This document shows, one piece after another, positions 23,473 to 34,650 of a stretch of 64,000 bases of DNA. Below the pieces are notes generated by a model. The model was not told where the DNA came from and did not search any database. It was given only the letters and a program-made list of their open reading frames with translations. This DNA is from Chitinophagaceae bacterium (GTDB lineage: Bacteria > Bacteroidota > Bacteroidia > Chitinophagales > Chitinophagaceae), in the NCBI GenBank assembly GCA_023957575.1, contig JAMLGU010000002.1, positions 372,001-436,000 on the forward strand. Direction: 5' to 3'. Each line of letters starts with the position of its first letter. Position 1 is the first letter of the stretch. The position numbers and the translations under genes are program-made.

Positions 23473-24731
23473 TTAAAAATTAAATGATTTCTGACAATTT
23501 GGCTTATTTGGTTTTCCTCTTGCTTTTACTGCGCCTTCTTTTATTTGGTTGCATACATAATCAAGGCTGTGGTAATAGGTTAAGCAAAAACGGATTTTTT
23601 CACACAGATTACTAAATGCCTGTGCGCCTTTTGCGATACAGCGCTTTATCAATTCTAATAAAAGATAGGTAATGAGCGCTATATAAATCTGAGATTTTAC
23701 AGCGTTTTCGCTTGTGCCTGTAAATGTTTTTACCAGTAAATTTTGCTTTAGTTGCTTAAAAAATATTTCAACATCCCATCACAAACTTTGTATAAGGCTG
23801 CAATGGTAGATGCTGCCCATCTCAATTCCTGGGTAATAATTTCCTAACTGAACATCTTTTTCACTATCATACACTACTATCCGGCGTAACGTTACCTGGT
23901 CAATGCCTACTTCGATGGCCTTTTTGCCGGTAAGCCGGATTAATTCATCCTTAAGTATATGCTGGTCTTTATCAACCGGTAATTCTTTTTCACAAATGCT
24001 TTCATATACTGTATTGTCTTTTATTCTGGTTACAAATACGTTATCAGCATTAATGCGTTGCATCATTAAACTGAAATCAAAATAGCCTTTATCTTCTACA
24101 ATAATAGTTCCCGAGTGCATAAATACTGTTTGCGGATGACCGCGTTTATCATGCACAGCCGCTTCGCCTATATTTTTATTTTCTGGATCAAGCATAAGAT
24201 GATCCAAACAGGTATGTATTTTTAATACCTCGCTTTAGCTGTCCGGAACTTCGCCCATTCAAATAAGGCTCAAACATAAGCTGATAGTGGTGCTGTCTAT
24301 TATCTTAATCACTTTACCTTTTATCTCTTCTATATCCATTGCTTTACCATGTCTCAGTAACAGATTGCTATAATGAGAGAGCAATTTGTAATACATCGTT
24401 TCAAATACCTTCCAGCTTCGTTTGCATTGCCGTCACTCATCGTACTTCTGGCGGGGCTTTGTTGTAATCCTAAGTCTCCAATAAAGGTGGTGTTTACAGC
24501 AATGGCGGTACTTATATCGCTTAAAGTCAGGCATTTATTCAGCTGTCCGAACATTTGAGAGACCAGTTGATCGTAAGTCTTATATTTACTACAGAATTTA
24601 TCACTTTTATGTTTAGCTATACTGCTTTGCAAAATAGAATTAGGAATAAGCTCTAAAATTTGTTTTATAATTGGCTTCTTGTTACTTTTATTACGAGTAA
24701 ATAGTCCCATATATTTATGAAATTTTGTCAC
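23473..24731 (-). pseudogene. decayed IS4-like DDE transposase (DUF4372 N-terminus)
   Basis: Read on the minus strand from 24,731, the first 125 residues (FTRNKSNKKPIIKQILELIP..., TYDQLVSQMFGQLNKC, TLSDISTAI) match the DUF4372 N-terminal domain of IS4-type transposases. The frame then breaks near 24,360 and again at two points near 24,230-24,260 inside the DSTTISLCLSLFEWAKFRTAKGGIK region. It resumes at HTCLDHLMLDPENKNIGEAAVHDKRG, and reaches an in-frame TGA at 23,779-23,781 where a Trp codon is expected (QSL-stop-WDVEIFFKQLKQN). The reading then runs on cleanly to a TAA at 23,473. Several independent lesions mean the element cannot move by itself. Terminal inverted repeats were not found by eye. 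Confidence 0.85.
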
Positions 24732-24833
24732 CTCAAAGATAATATGGGCTATTTTCTTTTTTTAACTGGTCACAAAACGTTAGTTTAAGCTATGGACTTT
24801 AGTCCAAGGCTTTAGCTTCTACAAATATCGTTG

Positions 24834-24841
24834 TATTTTTG
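24834..24841 (+). promoter_or_regulatory. putative -7 element, 4 nt before tnpA start
   Basis: The order TATTTTTG, TCAA, ATG has the same spacing as at purK. The same site is at 60,981-60,988 in copy 2. Confidence 0.45.
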
Positions 24842-24845
24842 TCAA

Positions 24846-25283
24846 ATGGAAAATGTTGCCAATCGTAAAAGTAGCCATAGTGTTCATCAATTGCATGTTC
24901 ATATAGTATGGAGTACAAAGTATCGGTATGGTGTAATGCGAGGCGAAGTGCAGATTCGATGCAGGGATTTAATACGTCAGATGTGCGATACGATGGATAT
25001 ACGGATACTAAAAGGTGTAGTGAGTAAAGACCATATTCATCTGCATATAAGTTATCCGCCGAAGTTGTCGATAAGCGAGATTGTGAAGCGTTTGAAGGGT
25101 AGAAGTGCGAGATTGCTGATGGATGAGTTTGTAGAATTGAAGAAACGTTATTGGGGTCAACACTTGTGGGGCATAGGCTACGGAGCTTGGAGTAGTGGAA
25201 ATATTACTGATGAGATGATTCAGAATTATTTGGAACATCACAGGGATAATCCAAATAGCGATGAGAATTTCATTCTTGAGTGA
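24846..25283 (+). CDS. tnpA: IS200/IS605 family Y1 (HUH) transposase TnpA, copy 1
   Basis: A 145-residue transposase that cuts and joins single-stranded DNA at the element ends. The HUH metal motif is HLHI, in KDHIHLHISYPP near residue 66. The catalytic Tyr is in MIQNYLEHH near the C-terminus. The N-terminal VHIVWSTKYRYGV and the GYGAWSSGNIT block are typical. I chose the ATG at 24,846; an upstream TTG at 24,831 overlaps the -7 element. No tnpB or fanzor-like gene accompanies it. It is identical to the copy at 60,993, which suggests recent movement. Confidence 0.95.
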   Translation: MENVANRKSSHSVHQLHVHIVWSTKYRYGVMRGEVQIRCRDLIRQMCDTMDIRILKGVVSKDHIHLHISYPPKLSISEIVKRLKGRSARLLMDEFVELKKRYWGQHLWGIGYGAWSSGNITDEMIQNYLEHHRDNPNSDENFILE

Positions 25284-25450
25284 TTTTAATGAACTTTCAG
25301 TTTACAGTTTTCAATGCTGTTTACAGCAAGTTCAAATGACTTTCAGTCAATGTACTCAACCTATGGATTTGCAATCCATAGTTGTTTAGTTCCGGATGGT
25401 AGTGACTTTGCATATATTAATCGTTAAAGATTATCAACACTATTTCCCTC

Positions 25451-25841
25451 CTCTTTTTACCCTGCGCCAGTCCAAAGGGGCGATGGGTGGTTGGGGGTCG
25501 GACCAAAGGCCGATTTTATTTTTTAGGGTTTTCTGCTATAGTTTCTTCCAGACAGGGATTTTATCAAAATAGGAATAATGTCAGGCTAAACCGGCTTAAG
25601 GCGCAGAAAAAAAAGAAATACAGTAAAAAGTGCCGGGTTTATTGCTTAGAGAAATTGAATTGATTGGTAAAAGGGAGGGGAAATTTGGGGGAAAAGGGTT
25701 GTGAAGGTGTGTGTAAAATATATTTTTCCTAAAATGTAAAAGATGGTATTTTTAGGGCAACTAATAAGTAAAAGAAAATAATTAAGGATAACTCGTTAAT
25801 GGGCAAGGGATTAATATTTGATTATGATATATGTTGTTTTG
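25451..25841 (+). repeat. left copy (R1) of a diverged direct repeat flanking the R-M cassette
   Basis: The first 45 bp (TCTTTTTACCCTGCGCCAGT through GGTTGGGG) are identical to 34,064-34,108. Further matching blocks in the same order are GATTTTATTTTTT, AAAAAAGAAATRCAGTAAA, ATAACTCGTTAAT and TTAATATTYGATTRTGATATRTGTT. The end lies 57 bp before the helicase gene. No protein is encoded. The block between the IS200 end (25,391) and R1 is AT-rich with nothing else visible. Confidence 0.8.
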
Positions 25842-25897
25842 TTTATTTACAAGATACAACATGCCAAAAAACGCTGAAATAAACAAGTGTGTAAATT

Positions 25898-26914
25898 ATG
25901 AGCCAAAAAACACAATCCATCAAATCCTATCAAATCGTATATCCGCAAATCTATTCCTATATCCTTCCTTCTCTGAGTGAAAATGAAGGTTCGCAAAAAA
26001 TCGGTTATACGGAAAGAAAAAATGTGGATGACCGAATAATAGAACAAACACAAACGGCTGCTTTTAGATTAAAATACAACAAACTCTGGAATGCTCCTGC
26101 TTTTTTTGAAGGTAATGAAGAGAGTTTTAACGATAAGGCTTTTCACAAATTCTTAGAAAAAAGCGGTATTGAAAAAAGAGATGATTTAGGAACGGAATGG
26201 TTCTATTTCAACGGTTATCCTGAAAAATCAAAAGTACTATTTGATAAATTCCGAAAGGAACGATTTGCTGCTTTGCAAAACGAAAAAGGAAAAATAGACT
26301 ATACTTTACGTTTTGAACAGGAAGAAGCGGTAACTAAAGCTATCGATTATTTCCAAAAAAATGAAAATGGCGAATTTCTTTGGAATGCAAAACCGCGTTT
26401 CGGTAAAACGTTGGCAAGCTATGATTTGGCAAAACGTTTAGGTGCGCAAAAAGTACTTATTGTAACCAACAGACCTGCTATTGCCAACTCGTGGTTCGAT
26501 GATTTTGAACTATTTGTCGATGGCTATCATTTTATTTCGGAAACTTCTTCTTTAAGTAACAGAGCAACGCTAACAAGGCAAGACTATTTAGAGAAAATCA
26601 AATTAACAGACCAAAAAGCGTTTATCACTTTCCTTTCGTTGCAAGATTTAAAAGGTTCTAAATTCTTTGGAGGAAATTTCGATAAATTGCGTTGGGTGGC
26701 TGATTTAGAGTGGGATTTATTGGTTATTGACGAAGCGCACGAAGGTATTGATACCACCAGAACAGATGCCGCTTTTGATGCGGTAAAACGCAAAAACACC
26801 CTACACCTTTCCGGAACTCCTTTTAAAGCCTTGGCAAACGAAAAATTTCCGAAAGAAGCGATTTACAACTGGACGTATCTGGACGAACAACGGATGAAAC
26901 AAATTGAACTGTAA
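25898..26914 (+). CDS. restriction-modification fusion protein, N-terminal part: GIY-YIG-like nuclease plus SF2 helicase (cut by in-frame TAA)
   Basis: Residues 1-110 (YPQIYSYILPSLSENEGSQK, then IGYTERKNVDDRIIEQ, and a later GTEWFYF) resemble the GIY-YIG/T5orf172 nuclease fold: paired Tyr-rich strands, an Arg and a late Glu. Helicase RecA domain 1 follows, with Walker A AKPRFGKT near residue 168, LLVIDEAHEG near 277 and motif III HLSGTPFKAL near 303. The stop TAA at 26,912-26,914 is in the same frame as the second part (26,942-30,109), and the codons after it (EGENGSHTDLPDLKLF) continue the helicase. One CAA to TAA change would explain it. As read, this piece alone lacks RecA domain 2 and the methyltransferase. 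The nuclease call is inference; the helicase is firm. Confidence 0.82.
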   Translation: MSQKTQSIKSYQIVYPQIYSYILPSLSENEGSQKIGYTERKNVDDRIIEQTQTAAFRLKYNKLWNAPAFFEGNEESFNDKAFHKFLEKSGIEKRDDLGTEWFYFNGYPEKSKVLFDKFRKERFAALQNEKGKIDYTLRFEQEEAVTKAIDYFQKNENGEFLWNAKPRFGKTLASYDLAKRLGAQKVLIVTNRPAIANSWFDDFELFVDGYHFISETSSLSNRATLTRQDYLEKIKLTDQKAFITFLSLQDLKGSKFFGGNFDKLRWVADLEWDLLVIDEAHEGIDTTRTDAAFDAVKRKNTLHLSGTPFKALANEKFPKEAIYNWTYLDEQRMKQIEL

Positions 26915-26941
26915 GAAGGCGAAAATGGTTCGCATACGGAT

Positions 26942-29900
26942 TTGCCCGATCTCAAATTGTTTACCTACCGTATTTCTCAAATGACCACCAACCAAGTCAA
27001 TGAGGGAATTGAAATTGATAATGAAACACGGGATTATGCCTTTGATTTGAATGAGTTTTTTAGAACCCACAATCAAAAATTCGTCCATGAAAACGATGTT
27101 CGGGAATTTTTGCATAATCTGACCACCAATAAAAAATATCCGTTCTCTACGCCTGAACTTCGGGCTGAACTCAAACACACGTTTTGGTATGTTGGCAACC
27201 GAGTGGATTCCGTAAAAGCATTGGCGAAATTATTGAAAGAAGTAGAAGCTTTTGAAGGTTACGAAATTGTAATTGCTGCCGGTGATGGCAAAAGTTTTGA
27301 GGAAGAAGAACACGATTTTAAAGGCAACGAATCTTCTTTTCAAAAAGTAAAAAAAGCAATCAAGGAACACGATAAAACCATTACCCTTTCTTGCGGACAG
27401 CTAACAACCGGTGTTACCGTGAAAGAATGGACAGCGGTTTTGATGCTCACCGATATTAAATCGCCTGCTTTGTATATGCAAGCGGCTTTCAGAGCACAAA
27501 ACCCATTTAATGAACTCAGAAACGGAGAATTGTACTACAAAAAATCGGCCTATCTGTTCGACTTTGCACCTACCAGAGTACTGGAAATTTACGATGATTT
27601 TGCTAATGGACTCAATCCCAAAGCAGTACAAGGTGAAATTACCGAAAAGGAAAGAGAAGAAAACATCCGTGAACTGTTGAACTTCTTCCCGGTGATTTCC
27701 GAAGATGTGAACGGTGAAATGATTGAACTCGATGCCGAAAAAGTGCTGACTTTCCCAAATGCATTGGCTGCTACCGAAATTGTGAATGCTCGTTTTATGA
27801 CCAATTTGCTCTTTAACGACACGTTGAAAGGCGTATTCAATTTTCCGAAAGAGGTGGAAGATATTTTGGACAAGTTGCCCGAAGAGAAAAACAAGCGGGT
27901 GCAACAAGCCAAACACACCCTCAACTTAGACGATGCAAAGGAAATTAACGACAACAAAACCAAAGAAATAACTCAAAATACCGGAATTATTCTCGGCGAA
28001 AAGATTTTTAAAACCAATGTAGAACGAGAAGTTGAAAATCTGTTGGCACAAAACAAAGAAGAAATTGTTACCAACGATTTGGTGGAAAAAGTTACCACAG
28101 TTGCCGAACCTTTGATTGCCAAATTAAAAGAAGTTTATAAAGCTACCCAAGCCGAAACCAAGGAAGCAACCCAACAAATTCAGGAAAAAGTAAAAGCCAT
28201 TGCCGAGGAATATAACGCTGCCGAAATAAAAGACAGCAAAGAACTCATACAAAAAATTAACGATGCCATAGAGTTTGATTTAGTGACCAACCTCGTTACC
28301 GAAAAAGAAGAAGAAAAGGTAGAAAAAGTACAAAAAACCAAGGAAGAAGAAATCCGTGACCGTTTGCGCTCGTTTACCCGCACCATTCCGATGTTTATCA
28401 TGGCGAATGATTCTAAAGATGAAATTACCATTGATAATTTTGATTTGGAAATTGATGACCACGATTTTGAGGAAATTACCAGCATTACCAAAGCCGAATT
28501 TCACAAATTGCGTGATGGTTTTGACTACGAAGAAGACGGAAAAAGAAAAACATTCCATGGTGTGTTCAATAAATACCGTTTCAATGCTTCCATTGCCGAG
28601 TTTAAAGCAAAAAAAGACCAATTAGCCAATTATTTTGAGGTAGAAGAAGACATTTTTGAATACATTCCCAACCAAAAAACCAACCAGATTTTCACACCCA
28701 AAAAAGTGGTACTTATGATGGTTGACAATTTAGAGGAGCACGACCCGAGTTTGTTTACCCGAACCGACAGCACCTTTATTGACTTGTATATGAAATCGGG
28801 GATGTATATTACCGAAGTAGTGAAAAAACTCTTCCACCACACCCGGAAATTCTACGATAGCGATGAAGCTTGCTTAAAACACATTTTAGAAAACCAGGTA
28901 TTTGGCTTGGCACCAACGCCTATTTTGCAAGGCATTACCCAAACTTACATTTTTGGCTTTGATACGGAGCATAAAATCTCCCGAAAGAACTTTGTGCAAC
29001 ACGACCTTACACCCGAGGCACAGGAAGACAAAGCAAAAGAAAAAATTTACGAACTTTTTAATTTAAATAAAGATATGAAATTTGATGCAGTGGTAGGAAA
29101 TCCGCCTTATCAGGAAACTACCGAAAATACAAGTGATGCTGCAATTTATCCGTTCTTTTATGATTTAGCCGAGCAAGTAGCACCTCAATATTGTTTAATA
29201 TCACCAGCTCGTTTCTTGTTTAATGCTGGTAAAACACCTGCAGAATGGAATAAAAAGATGCTTGAGAATGAGCATTTAAAGGTTTTGCATTATGAGCAGA
29301 AGTCAGAAAAATTATTTCCAAATACTGATATTATGGGTGGGATAGTTATTCTATACCATAATAGATACACTGAATTTGGAAAAATTGGGACATTTACGGC
29401 TTTTGAAGAATTAAACAGTATTGCTAAGAAAGTTGAGGAAAATGACACTTTCACTAGTATTGTACCTATAATACATCTTCAACAAAAGTTTGATCTTAAT
29501 AAACTCTACAAAGAGCATCCAAAAATTAAAGAAAAAATTGGTAGCGATGGGAGAGAAAGAAGATTAACTACCTCAATTTTTAGCAATGACGAGATTTTCA
29601 CTGATAAAAAAGAGTTCGACAATAGTGTAAAGATTTTAGGGCTAATTAAAAATCAAAGAGTTTATAAATATATTGAAAGGAGATTTTTAGAAAAACATGA
29701 AAATTTTGAAAAATTTAAAGTTTTAATCCCAAAATCAAATGGCTCAGGTGCCATAGGTGAGGTATTAAGCACACCTCTTATGGGAGAACCTCTTGTGGGA
29801 GAACCTCTTATAGGTCACACACAAAGTTTCATCTCGTTTGGAGCTTTTGACAAAGAGCAAGAAGCACAAAACTGTATGAAATACTTGAAATCAAAATTTG

Positions 29901-30109
29901 CCAGAACAATGTTGGGTATTTTAAAAGTTACGCAAGACAACAATCCTGAAACATGGTCAAAAGTTCCCCTCCAAGACTTCACCTCCGCTTCCGACATTGA
30001 TTGGAGTCAATCCATTGCGGAAATAGACCAACAGTTGTATAAAAAATACGGGTTGAGCGAGGAGGAAATTGCGTTTATAGAGGAGAAAATAAAGCCGATG
30101 GGGGATTAA
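26942..30109 (+). CDS. restriction-modification fusion protein, C-terminal part: helicase RecA2 plus N6-adenine DNA methyltransferase
   Basis: In frame with the preceding gene; together 25,898-30,109 would encode about 1,403 residues. This part has the second helicase domain (FWYVGNRVDSVKAL, then LSCGQLTTGVTVKEW and MQAAFRAQNPF, motif VI), a long acidic coiled-coil stretch (about residues 290-520), and then an Eco57I-like gamma-class methyltransferase. NQIFTPKKVVLMMVDNLEE opens it, TFIDLYMKSGMYI stands where motif I (usually DPACGSG) should be and is degenerate, and FDAVVGNPPYQ is catalytic motif IV. A target-recognition region and the GEPLVGEP repeats near 29,780 follow. The start at TTG 26,942 is nominal; ATG 26,981 is an alternative. 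The stop overlaps the first unit of a TTAATTG tract. Confidence 0.85.
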   Translation: MPDLKLFTYRISQMTTNQVNEGIEIDNETRDYAFDLNEFFRTHNQKFVHENDVREFLHNLTTNKKYPFSTPELRAELKHTFWYVGNRVDSVKALAKLLKEVEAFEGYEIVIAAGDGKSFEEEEHDFKGNESSFQKVKKAIKEHDKTITLSCGQLTTGVTVKEWTAVLMLTDIKSPALYMQAAFRAQNPFNELRNGELYYKKSAYLFDFAPTRVLEIYDDFANGLNPKAVQGEITEKEREENIRELLNFFPVISEDVNGEMIELDAEKVLTFPNALAATEIVNARFMTNLLFNDTLKGVFNFPKEVEDILDKLPEEKNKRVQQAKHTLNLDDAKEINDNKTKEITQNTGIILGEKIFKTNVEREVENLLAQNKEEIVTNDLVEKVTTVAEPLIAKLKEVYKATQAETKEATQQIQEKVKAIAEEYNAAEIKDSKELIQKINDAIEFDLVTNLVTEKEEEKVEKVQKTKEEEIRDRLRSFTRTIPMFIMANDSKDEITIDNFDLEIDDHDFEEITSITKAEFHKLRDGFDYEEDGKRKTFHGVFNKYRFNASIAEFKAKKDQLANYFEVEEDIFEYIPNQKTNQIFTPKKVVLMMVDNLEEHDPSLFTRTDSTFIDLYMKSGMYITEVVKKLFHHTRKFYDSDEACLKHILENQVFGLAPTPILQGITQTYIFGFDTEHKISRKNFVQHDLTPEAQEDKAKEKIYELFNLNKDMKFDAVVGNPPYQETTENTSDAAIYPFFYDLAEQVAPQYCLISPARFLFNAGKTPAEWNKKMLENEHLKVLHYEQKSEKLFPNTDIMGGIVILYHNRYTEFGKIGTFTAFEELNSIAKKVEENDTFTSIVPIIHLQQKFDLNKLYKEHPKIKEKIGSDGRERRLTTSIFSNDEIFTDKKEFDNSVKILGLIKNQRVYKYIERRFLEKHENFEKFKVLIPKSNGSGAIGEVLSTPLMGEPLVGEPLIGHTQSFISFGAFDKEQEAQNCMKYLKSKFARTMLGILKVTQDNNPETWSKVPLQDFTSASDIDWSQSIAEIDQQLYKKYGLSEEEIAFIEEKIKPMGD

Positions 30110-30147
30110 TTGTTAATTGTTAATTGTTAATTGTTAATTGTTAATTA
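30106..30147 (+). repeat. heptanucleotide tandem tract, TTAATTG type (6 units)
   Basis: Six units run from 30,106. The TAA stop of the methyltransferase gene (30,107-30,109) is inside unit one. Unit six, TTAATTA, supplies the A of the ATG of the next gene at 30,147. The whole intergenic spacer is therefore repeat. Confidence 0.95.
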
Positions 30148-30506
30148 TGAGGGAGAATGTGATTAAGATTAAAAGTTTTGAGTTTGCTGTTCGGATAGTG
30201 AAGTTTTACCAATTTTTATGTAATGAAAAGAAGGAATTCGTATTAAGTAAACAAGTTTTACGCAGTGGTACGAGTATTGGAGCAATGGTGAGAGAAGCAG
30301 AGCACAGTGAAAGTAAAGCTGATTTCATACATAAACTATCAATCGCTCAAAAAGAAATAAATGAAACCATTTATTGGTTGGATTTATTGAGAGCAACTGA
30401 TTATATAAGCCCTCAACAATTTGAAAGTATTCATGCTGATGCAGTAGAAATAATTAAATTAATTACAAGTATTATTAAATCGACGAAAAAGAATATTAAG
30501 AGTTAA
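30147..30506 (+). CDS. four-helix-bundle protein (23S rRNA intervening-sequence protein family)
   Basis: A 119-residue all-helical protein. FEFAVRIVKFYQFLCNEKKEF, QVLRSGTSIGAMVREAEHS and FIHKLSIAQKEINETIYWLDLL are the conserved blocks of the S23/four-helix-bundle family. The family includes proteins encoded in rRNA intervening sequences and the fold of the Avd accessory protein of diversity-generating retroelements. Members bind nucleic acid as pentamers in known cases, but the cellular role is unclear. No reverse transcriptase is nearby. The ATG at 30,147 begins in the last TTAATTA unit. It ends in TAA that opens another heptad tract, so repeats bound it on both sides. Confidence 0.9.
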   Translation: MRENVIKIKSFEFAVRIVKFYQFLCNEKKEFVLSKQVLRSGTSIGAMVREAEHSESKADFIHKLSIAQKEINETIYWLDLLRATDYISPQQFESIHADAVEIIKLITSIIKSTKKNIKS

Positions 30507-30558
30507 TGGTTAATTATTAATTGTTAATGGTTAATTGTTAATTGTTAATTGTTAATTG
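30503..30558 (+). repeat. heptanucleotide tandem tract, TTAATKG type (8 units)
   Basis: Eight units (TTAATGG, TTAATTA, TTAATTG and so on) are followed by GGGAGAGAATGTAATTAA. The stop of the four-helix gene (30,504-30,506) is in unit one. The 3' flank resembles the first codons of that gene (ATGAGGGAGAATGTGATTAA). Confidence 0.95.
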
Positions 30559-30595
30559 GGGAGAGAATGTAATTAATGAATAAAGTTAGGGGAAG

Positions 30596-31753
30596 ATGAA
30601 TTTGGAAAATACATTTAAACAAGATTTTGAGTCTGTTCTTCAGCTCATTACCGAAGCCCGAAATCGGGTTTACAGTATGGTAAACAGCGAATTAGTGCTC
30701 TTGTATTTTAATGTAGGAAAAGAAGTTTCTAATAAAGTAAATGCAGGTGTTTGGGGCGAAAGTACGGTTCAGCAATTAGCGGATTTTATTCAATCAAAAG
30801 CACCGGGTCTTTCCGGATTTAATCGTAGAGGTTTATACCGTATGAAACAATTTTTTGAGGTTTATTCTGACGCTCAATTTAATTCAACTGTAATAAATTT
30901 TCTACAAACAAATGAAAATCAGCTCAATGGAATTGTGTCGGCACTGCCGACACAATTGGAGAAAGACAATTCAAAAATGTCGGCACTGCCGTCACTTTTA
31001 AGCAATCCAGCCGAATTTCAACAAATATTCTTAGGAAATATACTTGCAAAAATTACCTGGTCTAATCATTTGGAAATATTGTCGGGAACTAAAACAGTAG
31101 AAGAGAAACTCTTCTATTTGTTGGCTTGCATAACAGAGAAATGGAGTATGCGAGAATTACGCAGACTAATCCAATCCGCTACTTATGAGCGCACCCTACT
31201 TTCCAAACAAACGGTATCTCCAACGGCAAAACATATTTCAAAAGACGTTTTTAAAGACCCGTATATCTTTGAGTTTTTAGATTTACCCGAATTACATTCA
31301 GAGAAGGATTTGGAAAAAGCAATTACCCTCAATTTACAAAAATTCATTTTAGAAGTGGGTAAAAGTTTTACCTATATGGGCGAACAATACCGCATACAGG
31401 TTGGTAATAAAGATTATTATACCGATTTGCTTTTTTATCATAGAGACTTGCAATGTTTAGTGATGTTTGAACTGAAAATTGAAGAGTTTAAACCGGAATT
31501 CATCGGCAAACTTAATTTTTATTTGGAAGCCTTAGACAGAGATGTCAAACGCCCTCACGAAAATCCAAGTATTGGAATTTTACTTTGTAAAGAAAAGAAT
31601 AATGAAGTGGTAGAATATGCTATGGCACGAAATATAAGTCCCACTGTAGTAGCTGAGTACGAGATAAAATTGATTGACAAGAAAATATTGACTCAAAAAT
31701 TACATCAGTTAGGAGCAATTTTAAGTAAAACGGACGATGAAAAAGAATATTAA
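30596..31753 (+). CDS. DUF1016 / YhcG-type PD-(D/E)XK nuclease, copy A
   Basis: A 385-residue protein. The helical DUF1016 N-terminal domain covers residues 1-200 (ARNRVYSMVNSELVLLYFNV, then SGFNRRGLYRMKQFFEVY and WSMRELRRLIQSATYERTLL). The nuclease domain follows, with YIFEFLDLPE, then YTDLLFYHRDLQCLVMFELK, giving the Asp and ExK of the active site near residues 275-295, and GKLNFYLEALDRD. The YhcG family is common in accessory and defence islands; its target is not established. Residues 105-140 hold a divergent insertion with a repeated SALP motif. It ends inside a heptad tract. Confidence 0.9.
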   Translation: MNLENTFKQDFESVLQLITEARNRVYSMVNSELVLLYFNVGKEVSNKVNAGVWGESTVQQLADFIQSKAPGLSGFNRRGLYRMKQFFEVYSDAQFNSTVINFLQTNENQLNGIVSALPTQLEKDNSKMSALPSLLSNPAEFQQIFLGNILAKITWSNHLEILSGTKTVEEKLFYLLACITEKWSMRELRRLIQSATYERTLLSKQTVSPTAKHISKDVFKDPYIFEFLDLPELHSEKDLEKAITLNLQKFILEVGKSFTYMGEQYRIQVGNKDYYTDLLFYHRDLQCLVMFELKIEEFKPEFIGKLNFYLEALDRDVKRPHENPSIGILLCKEKNNEVVEYAMARNISPTVVAEYEIKLIDKKILTQKLHQLGAILSKTDDEKEY

Positions 31754-31826
31754 TGGTTAATTGTTAATGGTTAATTGTTAATGGTTAATGGTTAATGGTT
31801 AATTGTTAATTGTTAATTGTTAATTG
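31750..31826 (+). repeat. heptanucleotide tandem tract, TTAATKG type (11 units, 77 bp exactly)
   Basis: Eleven full units alternate TTAATGG and TTAATTG. The stop of DUF1016 copy A (31,751-31,753) lies in unit one. It is followed by GGGAGAGAGTGTAATTAA, the same flank as after the tract at 30,503. Confidence 0.95.
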
Positions 31827-31947
31827 GGGAGAGAGTGTAATTAATAATAATTTTAAACTGACGACAATTTGTCGACAGTTGAGAATAGAAAAAAATACGA
31901 TGGGCAACAGATTTTTAGACATCATTCAAATTGTTGTTTTTTAAAAT

Positions 31948-32901
31948 ATGGGAAAGACTTTGAATACTATTGATAGTCATTTGTTAGAGAGTATTAAGCA
32001 AATTATTCTTAATGCACGGAAAAGTTTTTACCAAAAAGTAAATCAGGAACTTATCCTTACCTATTGGCAAATTGGAAAAGAAATTGTAGAAACAGAACAG
32101 AAAAACAATATTGACAACCAAACATCAAGACAAATTATTCTTCAACTTTCCAAACAACTGACCAACGAAATTGGGAAAGGATTTTCTCGTTCCAATCTGT
32201 TCAATATGAGGAAGTTTTACACAGAATACCCAAGTGTCCAGTCAGTGTCTGGACACCTCACTTGGACACATATTTGTGAACTTTTGATTATTGAAGATAA
32301 ATCCAAACGTAGTTTTTACGAAAAAGAATGTGTAAATGCTTCTTGGTCTGTCCGAGAACTTAAACGCCAAATAGACAGCTCACTTTATGAGCGTTTACTG
32401 CTTTCACAAGGAAAATCCAACAAAGAGAAAGTTTTGGAATTGGCACAAAAAGAGCAAGAATTGAACAAGGCAGAAGATATATTGAAAAATCCCTACGTTT
32501 TTGAATTTCTGGGTATTCCAGAAAGCAAACCGATATTGGAAAAAGATTTGGAAGCCAAACTTATCCGCCACCTTGAAGATTTTTTATTGGAATTGGGAAA
32601 AGGTTTTATGTTTGTAGGCTCGCAACAACGAATAACCATAAACAATACACATTATTATGTGGATATGGTTTTCTACAACAAAATTTTACGCTGTTATATT
32701 CTTATTGAACTCAAAACAACAAAACTTAATATTGCAGACGGTGGGCAACTCAATACTTATCTGAATTATTACAAAACGGAAGTAAATGATGAGACGGACA
32801 ATCCCCCAATCGGAATCATTTTGTGTGCAGAGAGAGATGAAATTACAGCAGAATATATTCTAGGGGATTTGAGAACAAATTGTTTGCCTCTAAATATGTA
32901 A
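31948..32901 (+). CDS. DUF1016 / YhcG-type PD-(D/E)XK nuclease, copy B, C-terminus frameshifted
   Basis: A 317-residue relative of copy A but clearly diverged. The N-terminal helical domain (ARKSFYQKVNQELILTYWQI, SRSNLFNMRKFYTEYP, WSVRELKRQIDSSLYERLLL) leads to the nuclease core (YVFEFLGIPE, then YYVDMVFYNKILRCYILIELK, and GQLNTYLNYYK). After AEYILG the frame fails: the normal family ending (FENKLFASKYVTILPDKEKL) is present one frame away and runs to TAA at 32,958-32,960. Adding one G to the GGGG run at 32,863-32,866 restores it. The catalytic Asp and ExK are upstream of the break, so activity may survive. Real frameshift, slippage switch or sequencing error cannot be told apart here. Confidence 0.85.
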   Translation: MGKTLNTIDSHLLESIKQIILNARKSFYQKVNQELILTYWQIGKEIVETEQKNNIDNQTSRQIILQLSKQLTNEIGKGFSRSNLFNMRKFYTEYPSVQSVSGHLTWTHICELLIIEDKSKRSFYEKECVNASWSVRELKRQIDSSLYERLLLSQGKSNKEKVLELAQKEQELNKAEDILKNPYVFEFLGIPESKPILEKDLEAKLIRHLEDFLLELGKGFMFVGSQQRITINNTHYYVDMVFYNKILRCYILIELKTTKLNIADGGQLNTYLNYYKTEVNDETDNPPIGIILCAERDEITAEYILGDLRTNCLPLNM

Positions 32902-33008
32902 CCATACTTCCCGACAAAGAAAAATTAATCCAAGAAGTAGAAAATGTAATTAATAAATAAACACTAATAATGAATCTTGTTACATAATAGTAAAGCATTC
33001 AAAAGAAA

Positions 33009-33938
33009 ATGAGTAACATAGAACAACATATCAAAAACATAGACATCCGTGAAGATTATCTTTTGAAAGAAGATCATCTTTTAGAAATCTTATTGCAAGA
33101 CAAAACCACCCAAAAGAATATCCTTTGGGCAACGGATTCCTATGAACAAAAAGGAGAAAAATATATCGCTTCAGCACACATTACATCGGATTTGATAACC
33201 GGAGATAATGGTGATTTGATTCAACCAAGATCGGTCAAAAGTAAGGAAGAACAATTGTCGAGGACACGAGATAAAGCCGAAGTGTTTACACCGCTTTCTA
33301 TCGTCAAACAAATGAATGATGCTTGTGATTCCCAGGGAACTACAGAAAAAAACTGGCAAGAATACGTTTCTCTATTAAAATTGGAAATCACTTGTGGTGA
33401 AGCGCCTTTTATCGTTTCGCGTTACGACCCTGTTTCGGATAAGCAGGAATTATTGCCATTAAATAAACGTGTTGGTTTTTTAGATAAGAAATTACGTATT
33501 GTTTCTAAATATTGTGATACGCAAGAAGAATGGTTGCAATGGGCAAAAATTGCTTTTCAAAGCGCTTACGGTTTTGAATGGCAAGGCGATAATTTACTAA
33601 TAGCCCGGGAAAATTTGCTTTATACTTTTGTAGATTATTATGAAGATAAATTTAAGCATAAACCGGGTATTGAACTTCAAAAAGAGATTGCGGAAATCAT
33701 AGCATGGAACATCTTCCAAATGGACGGTTTGAAATATGTAATTCCGATGAGTTGTAAAACAGAGAAAGTGGTCATCAAAGGTCAGGTAACCTTATTTGAA
33801 GTAGAGGAAGACCGAATAGAAGAAAAACCTTGTGATGGTTGCAAAACCAACAATGCAAAAAAGCATAATGGCATTTATGTAACAATTTTGGATTGGAAGG
33901 AGGGGAAAGTAATACGATTTGTGGATATGGCAGAATAA
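33009..33938 (+). CDS. methyltransferase-like R-M partner protein (restriction endonuclease subunit M-like), no NPPY motif
   Basis: A 309-residue cytoplasmic protein. KAEVFTPLSIVKQMNDACDS recalls the entry to adenine methyltransferases, and LEITCGEAPFIVSRYDPVSD looks like a changed motif I (usual form DPxCGxGxF). Further conserved blocks are RVGFLDKKLRIVSKY, YGFEWQGDNLLIARENLLYTF and IIAWNIFQMDGLKYVIP. No NPPY or DPPY motif IV exists, so it is unlikely to methylate by itself. A late Cys pair (CDGCK) may bind metal. I recognise the family as one found beside helicase-methyltransferase genes. Its role (specificity, SAM binding or nuclease control) is unknown. A promoter of its own is possible in the 48-bp gap before it. 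Confidence 0.75.
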   Translation: MSNIEQHIKNIDIREDYLLKEDHLLEILLQDKTTQKNILWATDSYEQKGEKYIASAHITSDLITGDNGDLIQPRSVKSKEEQLSRTRDKAEVFTPLSIVKQMNDACDSQGTTEKNWQEYVSLLKLEITCGEAPFIVSRYDPVSDKQELLPLNKRVGFLDKKLRIVSKYCDTQEEWLQWAKIAFQSAYGFEWQGDNLLIARENLLYTFVDYYEDKFKHKPGIELQKEIAEIIAWNIFQMDGLKYVIPMSCKTEKVVIKGQVTLFEVEEDRIEEKPCDGCKTNNAKKHNGIYVTILDWKEGKVIRFVDMAE

Positions 33939-34063
33939 AAAAAAATGATGGCAGGAAAAGACACGGCTGCATTACATCCAGTTTACCTTCGGCGTTAGTT
34001 TCCTTCGTGGCTGCCTGTGGAAAGCTGGTCAGACGTTAATGATAATCAAAATTGTTTTTGTTA

Positions 34064-34551
34064 TCTTTTTACCCTGCGCCAGTCCAAAGGGGCGATGGGT
34101 GGTTGGGGAGAGTAACAGAGGTTGATTTTATTTTTTCAGGCTTGATGTGCCAGCCGGTGCAAGGCAGAGGCTTTATCAAGGTAGGTACAATTCTGGACTT
34201 AGTCTGGTTTGGGGAACAGAAAAAAGAAATGCAGTAAATAGGATACGGTTCATGGAGTAAAGCGCCTCACCCCCGGTCCCTCTCCGGGTGGAGAGGGGAA
34301 TGAGAATATTTTTTTGGGAGAAATTTAAAAGGCAGTAATTTTAAAGGGAATTGATTTGTAAGAGAAAGTGAATATTGGCTGGAGAAAATAGGCTATGAGG
34401 TTTTTGATTTTAACCTGGAATCAGTTTGTTTTTTTTGACTGCGGAGAATAAATTGTTTTAATATTTAAGTAAATAAAGTAAAATTAATTAAAGAATGATA
34501 ACTCGTTAATAGACAAGTAGTTAATATTCGATTGTGATATGTGTTATTTTG
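34064..34551 (+). repeat. right copy (R2) of the diverged direct repeat flanking the R-M cassette
   Basis: It starts with the same 45 bp as R1 and keeps the same order of matching blocks. It is about 97 bp longer, partly because a REP-like hairpin and its flanks sit inside. It fills most of the 712-bp gap between the methyltransferase-like gene and the CPBP gene. Before it, 33,939-34,063 shows no feature I can name. Confidence 0.8.
34278..34297. repeat. REP-like hairpin inside R2
   Basis: CCCTCTCC-GGGT-GGAGAGGG is a perfect 8-bp stem. The flank CCTCACCCCCGGT is the inverted form of the copy at 19,226-19,245. Confidence 0.75.
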
Positions 34552-34650
34552 GCTTTTTTTGAGTTGGCAGCAATCTTTAAAGACAGACTGCTCATGAAAA
34601 TATTTTTAACAAATGAGTAATGTTTAATTAGATATAAATTATAGAAATTT

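What the first reader, a model, noticed from the sequence alone, without database searches (positions are those of the whole stretch)
33009..33938. Methyltransferase-like protein that lost the catalytic motif
Seen: LEITCGEAPF in place of motif I and no NPPY-like motif anywhere, yet long well-kept blocks such as YGFEWQGDNLLIARENLLYTF and a late CDGCK. Inference: a scaffold or specificity partner of the fused helicase-methylase.
Basis: partly seen in the sequence, partly recalled or inferred. Interest (0 to 1): 0.55.

Follow-up and report, generated by a model that had tools for sequence, protein, structure and literature searches.

The report
SAM-binding half of split DNA methyltransferase
This protein looks like a methyltransferase that lost its active site, but it is more probably the cofactor-binding half of a DNA methyltransferase whose catalytic and DNA-reading half is encoded in the neighbouring restriction-enzyme gene, an arrangement in which one swappable half could set the target of both cutting and protection.

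Summary
In detail: window 33009-33938 encodes 309 aa with no NPPY-like motif. But LEITCGEAPF is motif I, not a replacement for it. It aligns with FLEPACGSGNFL of M1.DrdVI (profile probability 99.5), CGE[AG] is kept in 117 of 117 relatives, and motif IV is absent from 117 of 117. Nothing seems lost: the protein is the motif X-I-II-III half of a gamma-class m6A methyltransferase. The NPPY and target-recognition half (C-half) ends the neighbouring nuclease-helicase protein. In 7 of 117 loci the two halves are one ORF, joined just before NPPY; in the 6 of those with a helicase gene, that protein ends where NPPY would begin. A natural fusion folds as one CamA/TaqI-like enzyme. The helicase's own motif I-III region has K[ST]G for the motif I glycine in 65 of 65 copies. 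The C-half behaves as a cassette: window and sister are 79 of 80 identical before NPPY and diverge right after it. The kind is known: DrdVI and MaeIV are published as split methylases. The shared-half logic I did not find in print. In this genome the partner gene has an in-frame stop.

The parts
33009..33938 (+). M1-type subunit (N-half): motifs X, I, II, III of a gamma-class m6A methyltransferase, no motif IV
   Evidence: (PADLOC PDLC03390 E 4e-102)
33279..33293 (+). motif X-like EVFTP
   Evidence: invariant in A1; [EDA]VFTP found in 108 of 117, all as EVFTP
33381..33410 (+). motif I LEITCGEAPF (SAM binding, inferred)
   Evidence: 117 of 117 keep CGE[AG]; aligned with FLEPACGSGNFL of M1.DrdVI
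33567..33590 (+). motif II YGFEWQGD
33705..33728 (+). motif III-like WNIFQMDG
   Evidence: aligned with LNLIHGDA of M1.DrdVI
25898..30109 (+). M2/restriction gene: GIY-YIG-like N-terminus, SF2 helicase, degenerate N-half (Dh), catalytic and TRD half (Ch); interrupted by one in-frame stop at 26912-26914
25898..26240 (+). T5orf172/GIY-YIG-like nuclease domain (weak, below Pfam cut-off; approximate borders)
   Evidence: E 0.0064, 17.4 bits against a cut-off of 20
26300..27680 (+). SF2 helicase (ResIII) region, approximate borders
   Evidence: (E 1.8e-15)
28652..29074 (+). degenerate N-half (Dh); motif I equivalent FIDLYMKSGMY at 28775-28807 with K for the glycine
29075..30106 (+). C-half: motif IV NPPY at 29099-29110, then TRD; exchangeable cassette
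   Evidence: (Eco57I E 8e-21)
30138..32901 (+). passenger genes between M2 and M1: S23 four-helix bundle protein and two YhcG/DUF1016 nucleases; not part of the mechanism
   Evidence: 55 of 63 loci of the same architecture have no insert here

Best explanation
The protein is the SAM-binding half (motifs X, I, II, III) of a split gamma-class N6-adenine DNA methyltransferase of the DrdVI-like kind. The other half, with NPPY and the target-recognition domain (C-half), is at the C-terminus of the neighbouring nuclease-helicase protein. Inferred mechanism: this subunit docks in trans on the C-half to make the methylating enzyme. The same C-half is also fused to a second N-half (Dh) that looks unable to bind SAM; with Dh it would read the site for the nuclease-helicase that cuts unmodified DNA. 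One C-half thus serves both arms, so replacing the C-half cassette changes the specificity of restriction and modification together. Shown by sequence: motif content, gene fusions, module boundary, cassette exchange. Predicted: the fold of a natural fusion and of Dh plus C-half. Inferred only: SAM binding, docking in trans, displacement of Dh, the two-arm switch.
For: Motif I in 117 of 117 and motif IV in 0 of 117 N-halves. N-half and C-half in one ORF in 7 of 117 loci; in the 6 of these with a helicase gene that protein ends with Dh; the quick tree needs 6 changes for these 7 rows, at least 5 forced by starred branches. Phages FNU4 (L024, fused) and PTm1 (L025/L111, two genes) have both halves with no helicase in reach. 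Natural fusion L085: pLDDT 93.8, pTM 0.91; CamA Z 18.3, rmsd 5.6, 414 residues; TaqI Z 13.1, 321 residues. Window Dh plus C-half: pLDDT 87.6; CamA Z 20.5, rmsd 4.2, 396 residues. K[ST]G in 65 of 65 Dh; no acidic residue at the motif II place in the 42 of 65 where it was recognised. M1.DrdVI is homologous (probability 99.5, E 6e-23) and also lacks NPPY; M2.DrdVI has KSG and NPPY; cloned M1-2.DrdVI gives GCAGCC m6A (PMC6430315).
Against: Dh plus C-half alone is predicted as a complete methyltransferase fold, so the fused partner might work by itself despite the lysine. By sequence alone Dh is not recognisably related to the N-half (hhalign probability 16). No complex was predicted and the window protein was not folded alone. 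21 of 117 loci show the N-half with no C-half and no helicase in reach (5 of 80 genome loci, 4 of them near contig ends; 16 of 30 viral loci). DrdVI and MaeIV, in the texts I read, were expressed as pairs, not singly.
Confidence: 0.83

Rival explanations
1. One reading: a catalytically dead methyltransferase relative that serves as scaffold or specificity subunit of the helicase-methylase.
For: No motif IV; adjacent to the helicase-methylase in most loci.
Against: Motif I is invariant and motif II nearly so, unlike a decayed SAM site; the TRD lies in the C-half; the protein is fused straight to NPPY in 7 of 117 loci and found with the C-half without helicase in phages.
Confidence: 0.06
2. The helicase protein's own Dh plus C-half is the active methyltransferase (it binds SAM despite the lysine), and M1 is an allosteric activator or forms a second complex.
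For: Dh plus C-half folds as a full methyltransferase in the model.
Against: K[ST]G for the motif I glycine in 65 of 65 and no acidic motif II residue in the 42 recognised; in fused loci the C-half leaves the helicase protein and joins M1.
Confidence: 0.08
3. In this genome the pair is a relic: the partner gene carries a nonsense codon, so restriction, and perhaps methylation, is off. (Compatible with the best explanation of the family.)
For: In-frame stop at codon 339 (26912-26914), absent from the 6 relatives aligned; one copy of either gene in the own genome.
Against: No other stop in the 1403-codon frame, helicase distance to L070 only 0.09 and the M1 frame is open, so decay would be recent; an assembly error is not excluded.
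Confidence: 0.4

Closest known systems
DrdVI (M1-2.DrdVI, Deinococcus wulumuqiensis plasmid pDrdVI; PMC6430315)
   Same: Small subunit with X-I-II-III and no NPPY; M2 with KSG in the motif I place, NPPY and TRD; a helicase gene, GIY-YIG-like at its start by eye, beside them.
   Different: In DrdVI M2 (Dh plus C-half) and helicase are separate genes; in the window they are one frame, the gene order is reversed and passengers lie between. M1 is 309 aa against 212 aa.
M1-M2.MaeIV (Methanococcus aeolicus; PMC10113651)
   Same: Named by its authors a split methylase/RM similar to DrdVI, m6A at GCACY, two subunits cloned together (passages).
   Different: Sequences not compared here.
PADLOC PDLC03390 / PDLC03375 / PDLC03626 (Type II methyltransferase; IIG)
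   Same: PDLC03390 covers the N-half (E 4e-102), PDLC03375 a stand-alone C-half starting near NPPY, PDLC03626 the fused helicase protein.
   Different: The models give no mechanism and file each half as a methyltransferase.
Type ISP enzymes LlaGI and LlaBIII
   Same: Nuclease, SF2 helicase, methyltransferase and TRD in one chain (abstract of PMC4666363 in the listing); fold match of the methyltransferase part.
   Different: Mrr nuclease and one complete methyltransferase in a single chain; here GIY-YIG-like, SAM site degenerate, a second subunit beside it.
DnmA-YeeB-YeeC (Bacillus subtilis; PMC9973331)
   Same: m6A methyltransferase with helicase and T5orf172/GIY-YIG genes in a cluster (passages).
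   Different: Described as three genes with an unsplit methyltransferase; not compared by sequence here.

Membership tests
DrdVI-like split m6A methyltransferase/R-M | small subunit with motifs X, I, II, III and no motif IV | tested here: met
DrdVI-like split m6A methyltransferase/R-M | partner with NPPY and TRD, motif I glycine replaced by lysine | tested here: met
   window 28775-28807 and 29099-29110
DrdVI-like split m6A methyltransferase/R-M | GIY-YIG-like and SF2 helicase polypeptide in the same cluster | tested here: met
   the nuclease domain is below the Pfam cut-off and the gene has a stop
DrdVI-like split m6A methyltransferase/R-M | both subunits together give m6A at an asymmetric site | not testable with these tools
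   needs expression and methylome sequencing
gamma-class N6-adenine methyltransferase (M.TaqI/CamA fold) | module order X-I-II-III-IV-VIII-TRD and fold, counted over both halves | tested here: met
   natural fusion L085; the window protein itself was not folded alone
gamma-class N6-adenine methyltransferase (M.TaqI/CamA fold) | NPPY catalytic motif in the same polypeptide | tested here: not met
   0 of 117; supplied by the neighbour
Type ISP restriction enzyme | complete active methyltransferase in the helicase chain | tested here: not met
   K[ST]G in motif I of the fused protein, 65 of 65; activity itself untested
Type I R-M | separate HsdS specificity subunit | tested here: not met
   no HsdS-like family hit among the 9 proteins of the block scanned; TRD is part of the C-half
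DnmA-YeeB-YeeC | sequence homology of helicase and nuclease proteins | not tested
   paper passages only

The most novel reading that the evidence does not exclude
Partner exchange on one catalytic half: the C-half alternates between a SAM-dead N-half tied to the nuclease-helicase (restriction) and the SAM-binding M1 (modification), and is replaced as a cassette whose crossover point is the NPPY codons, so the specificity of both arms switches in one step. Phages that carry only the M1 half (16 of 30 viral loci here) may use it to turn a host's restriction protein into a methylase that protects the phage.
Probability: 0.25. Interest if true: 0.8.

Novelty: new member of a known kind. Interest (0 to 1): 0.5.

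Why it matters
It gives a Type I-like reason for splitting a methyltransferase: one recognition half shared by the cutting and the protecting arm, so that one recombination event changes both. It also allows a direct test of whether phage-borne half-enzymes work as anti-restriction.

Tried and rejected
Pfam, NCBIfam and PHROGs gave no family for the 309-aa protein, nor did solved structures by sequence; only PADLOC did. A profile of the fusion alignment found one weak solved relative, a Type I M subunit, over the NPPY part.

A hidden or permuted motif IV: none in 117 N-halves. Paralogy of N-half and Dh by sequence: not shown (hhalign probability 16). The first distant-family alignment held wrong frames and was rebuilt on the right strand.

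C-half elsewhere in the viral records with a solo N-half: 15 of 16 had no match to P0009 at E 0.01 (which searched 18 records, two of them not of this class). Eco57I family matches at E 0.1 in 5 of 16, over the cut-off in 4 (L120, L122, L131, L137); in L137 it is a complete-looking methyltransferase about 1 kb from the N-half. Records may be fragments.

Tree: the careful search did not finish; the quick tree was used. Literature searches that showed no account of the shared-half mechanism: (open-licence PMC papers only). REBASE itself could not be consulted.

Full report
What is there. The ORF 33009-33938 (+) encodes 309 aa. Pfam, NCBIfam and PHROGs give no family; PADLOC gives PDLC03390, a Type II methyltransferase model, at E 4e-102. 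The own genome holds one copy. In a sample of 296 genomes of the phylum, 15 had a match at E 0.001 (the window's own genome among them), most of them only to the distant short form. The viral scan gave 30 loci (L109-L138). Six more came from plasmid and phage records (L022-L025, L027, L028); L026 fell below the score limit and is left out of the counts.

Motifs. Profiles of the N-half (Nh), the C-half with NPPY and TRD (Ch), the degenerate N-half behind the helicase (Dh), the helicase and the GIY-YIG-like domain were built from the window and a few relatives and run over all frames of L022-L138 and the window. Of 117 Nh copies, 117 have motif I with CGE[AG], 108 have EVFTP, and none has an NPPY-like motif. 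Of 65 Dh copies, 65 have K[ST]G where motif I has its glycine; at the place of the motif II acid the residue was C, A, S or T in the 42 recognised, and 23 were not recognised by the pattern. Of 94 Ch hits, 86 show NPPY near the start; the other 8 are fragments, interrupted or masked copies and one NPLY.

Gene architecture (n = 117). 63 loci: Nh gene beside a helicase-Dh-Ch gene, as in the window. 7 loci: Nh and Ch in one ORF; in the 6 of these with a helicase gene, that protein ends at the end of Dh, and the seventh is phage FNU4 without a helicase in reach. 12 loci: Nh, C-half and helicase on three frames, with Dh on the helicase or on the C-half protein. 4 loci: Nh and Ch without helicase in reach, among them phage PTm1, where the C-half gene comes first. 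10 loci: a helicase but no C-half above the score limit, mostly cut by contig ends. 21 loci: Nh alone in reach, namely 5 genome loci (4 near contig ends, and L061, which is followed by another gene with a GIY-YIG-like start, by eye) and 16 viral loci. In the fusions the junction reads straight into the stretch around GNPPY, with 0 to 31 residues between the profile ends. The fused form is not one clade: 6 changes for 7 rows, at least 5 forced by starred branches, on the quick tree. In the 63 loci of the window's type both genes lie on one strand, and in 55 of 63 the stop-to-stop frames overlap or lie within 12 bases.

Structure. The natural fusion L085 (655 aa, 134-row alignment that includes the window protein) is predicted with pLDDT 93.8 and pTM 0.91. 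It matches whole m6A methyltransferases across the junction: CamA 7rfk_B Z 18.3, rmsd 5.6, 414 residues; MmeI 5hr4_J Z 17.6, rmsd 6.5, 442 residues; M.TaqI 1g38_A Z 13.1, rmsd 4.4, 321 residues (Foldseek). The window's Dh plus C-half (28652-30106, 44 rows) gives pLDDT 87.6, pTM 0.82; CamA Z 20.5, rmsd 4.2, 396 residues; TaqI 2ih5_A Z 18.8, rmsd 3.7, 321 residues. Both N-halves are thus predicted in the same place on the same C-half, which implies that they exclude each other unless the complex is larger; that step is inference. Coordinates were not at hand, so pocket geometry was not measured, and the window protein was not folded alone.

The C-half is a cassette. Window and L070 are 79 of 80 identical in the 80 residues before NPPY and 14 of 37 in the next 40 columns, NPPY included; seven further pairs were looked at, most with the drop at NPPY, L071/L076 with an earlier one. 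In 44 loci of the window's type, distances of Nh, Dh and helicase go together (Spearman: Nh-Dh 0.53, Nh-helicase 0.52, Dh-helicase 0.91), while those of the first 120 residues of the C-half do not follow them (0.05, 0.08, 0.11); the two parts of the C-half go together (0.56). Distances near 0.65 are close to saturation, but close pairs show the same: the window's nearest C-half is on a Pediococcus plasmid (L028; distance 0.35/0.42, helicase 0.42), not in its sister L070 (0.66/0.59, helicase 0.09). A few pairs keep helicase and C-half together (L088/L089, L040/L041, L029/L043). L110 has a silent and an inverted C-half copy with a 33-nt inverted repeat over the NPPYQ codons and a tyrosine-recombinase-like ORF (by eye) beside it.

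Known kin. [quoted passage not shown] The DrdVI announcement lists M1-2.DrdVI, GCAGCC, 6mA, IIG, cloned and expressed (PMC6430315, whole text). I read the pDrdVI genes: M1 212 aa without NPPY, M2 539 aa with KSG and NPPY, and a helicase protein. The window family and an alignment headed by M1.DrdVI match at 99.5 % probability, E 6e-23, motif on motif. [quoted passage not shown] The kind is therefore known; the degenerate second N-half and the shared, swappable C-half I did not find described.

State in this genome. The partner's frame 25898-30109 has one stop inside, at codon 339, in the helicase; six relatives are open there. Passenger genes (S23 protein, two YhcG nucleases) lie between partner and M1. 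The system may be off in this strain, or the stop may be an error; either way the M1 frame is intact.

Verdict. A member of the DrdVI-like split methyltransferases, read by the first stage as a dead enzyme. Interest 0.5: the member is ordinary, but one catalytic half shared by two N-halves is a testable idea that would surprise if true.

Noticed in passing
window 26912-26914: In-frame stop in the helicase-methylase gene, not in the six relatives aligned.
   Followed up: partly
L110 11166-15213: Silent and inverted C-half copies, 33-nt inverted repeat spanning the NPPYQ codons, tyrosine-recombinase-like ORF: looks like a specificity shufflon.
   Followed up: partly
L119-L125, L129-L131, L133-L138: Viral records with an N-half (motif I intact) and no C-half in reach; 15 of 16 without a P0009 match in the whole record.
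   Followed up: partly
window 25422-25848 and 34034-34558: Diverged direct repeats (74 and 78 % for the two longest pairs) bracket the R-M block; the own genome has other copies of the element.
   Followed up: partly
window 30106-30187, 30496-30577, 31736-31859: Arrays of a 7-base unit (TTAATTG/TTAATGG) at the borders of the passenger genes.
   Followed up: no
window 31948-32960: The second YhcG nuclease stops short of the profile end and its likely C-terminus reads on in another frame: probable frameshift (by eye).
   Followed up: no
L029 8440-8586, L033 5380-5568, L101 7729-7872: Stray C-terminal fragments of C-halves near the M1 or M2 gene, perhaps scars of cassette exchange.
   Followed up: no
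L123 7414-8085: Another short methyltransferase-like ORF with FTP and a motif I-like stretch but no NPPY, near the solo N-half.
   Followed up: no
window 23779-24731 (-): IS4-type transposase broken into two frames, next to an IS200-type gene at 24831-25283.
   Followed up: no
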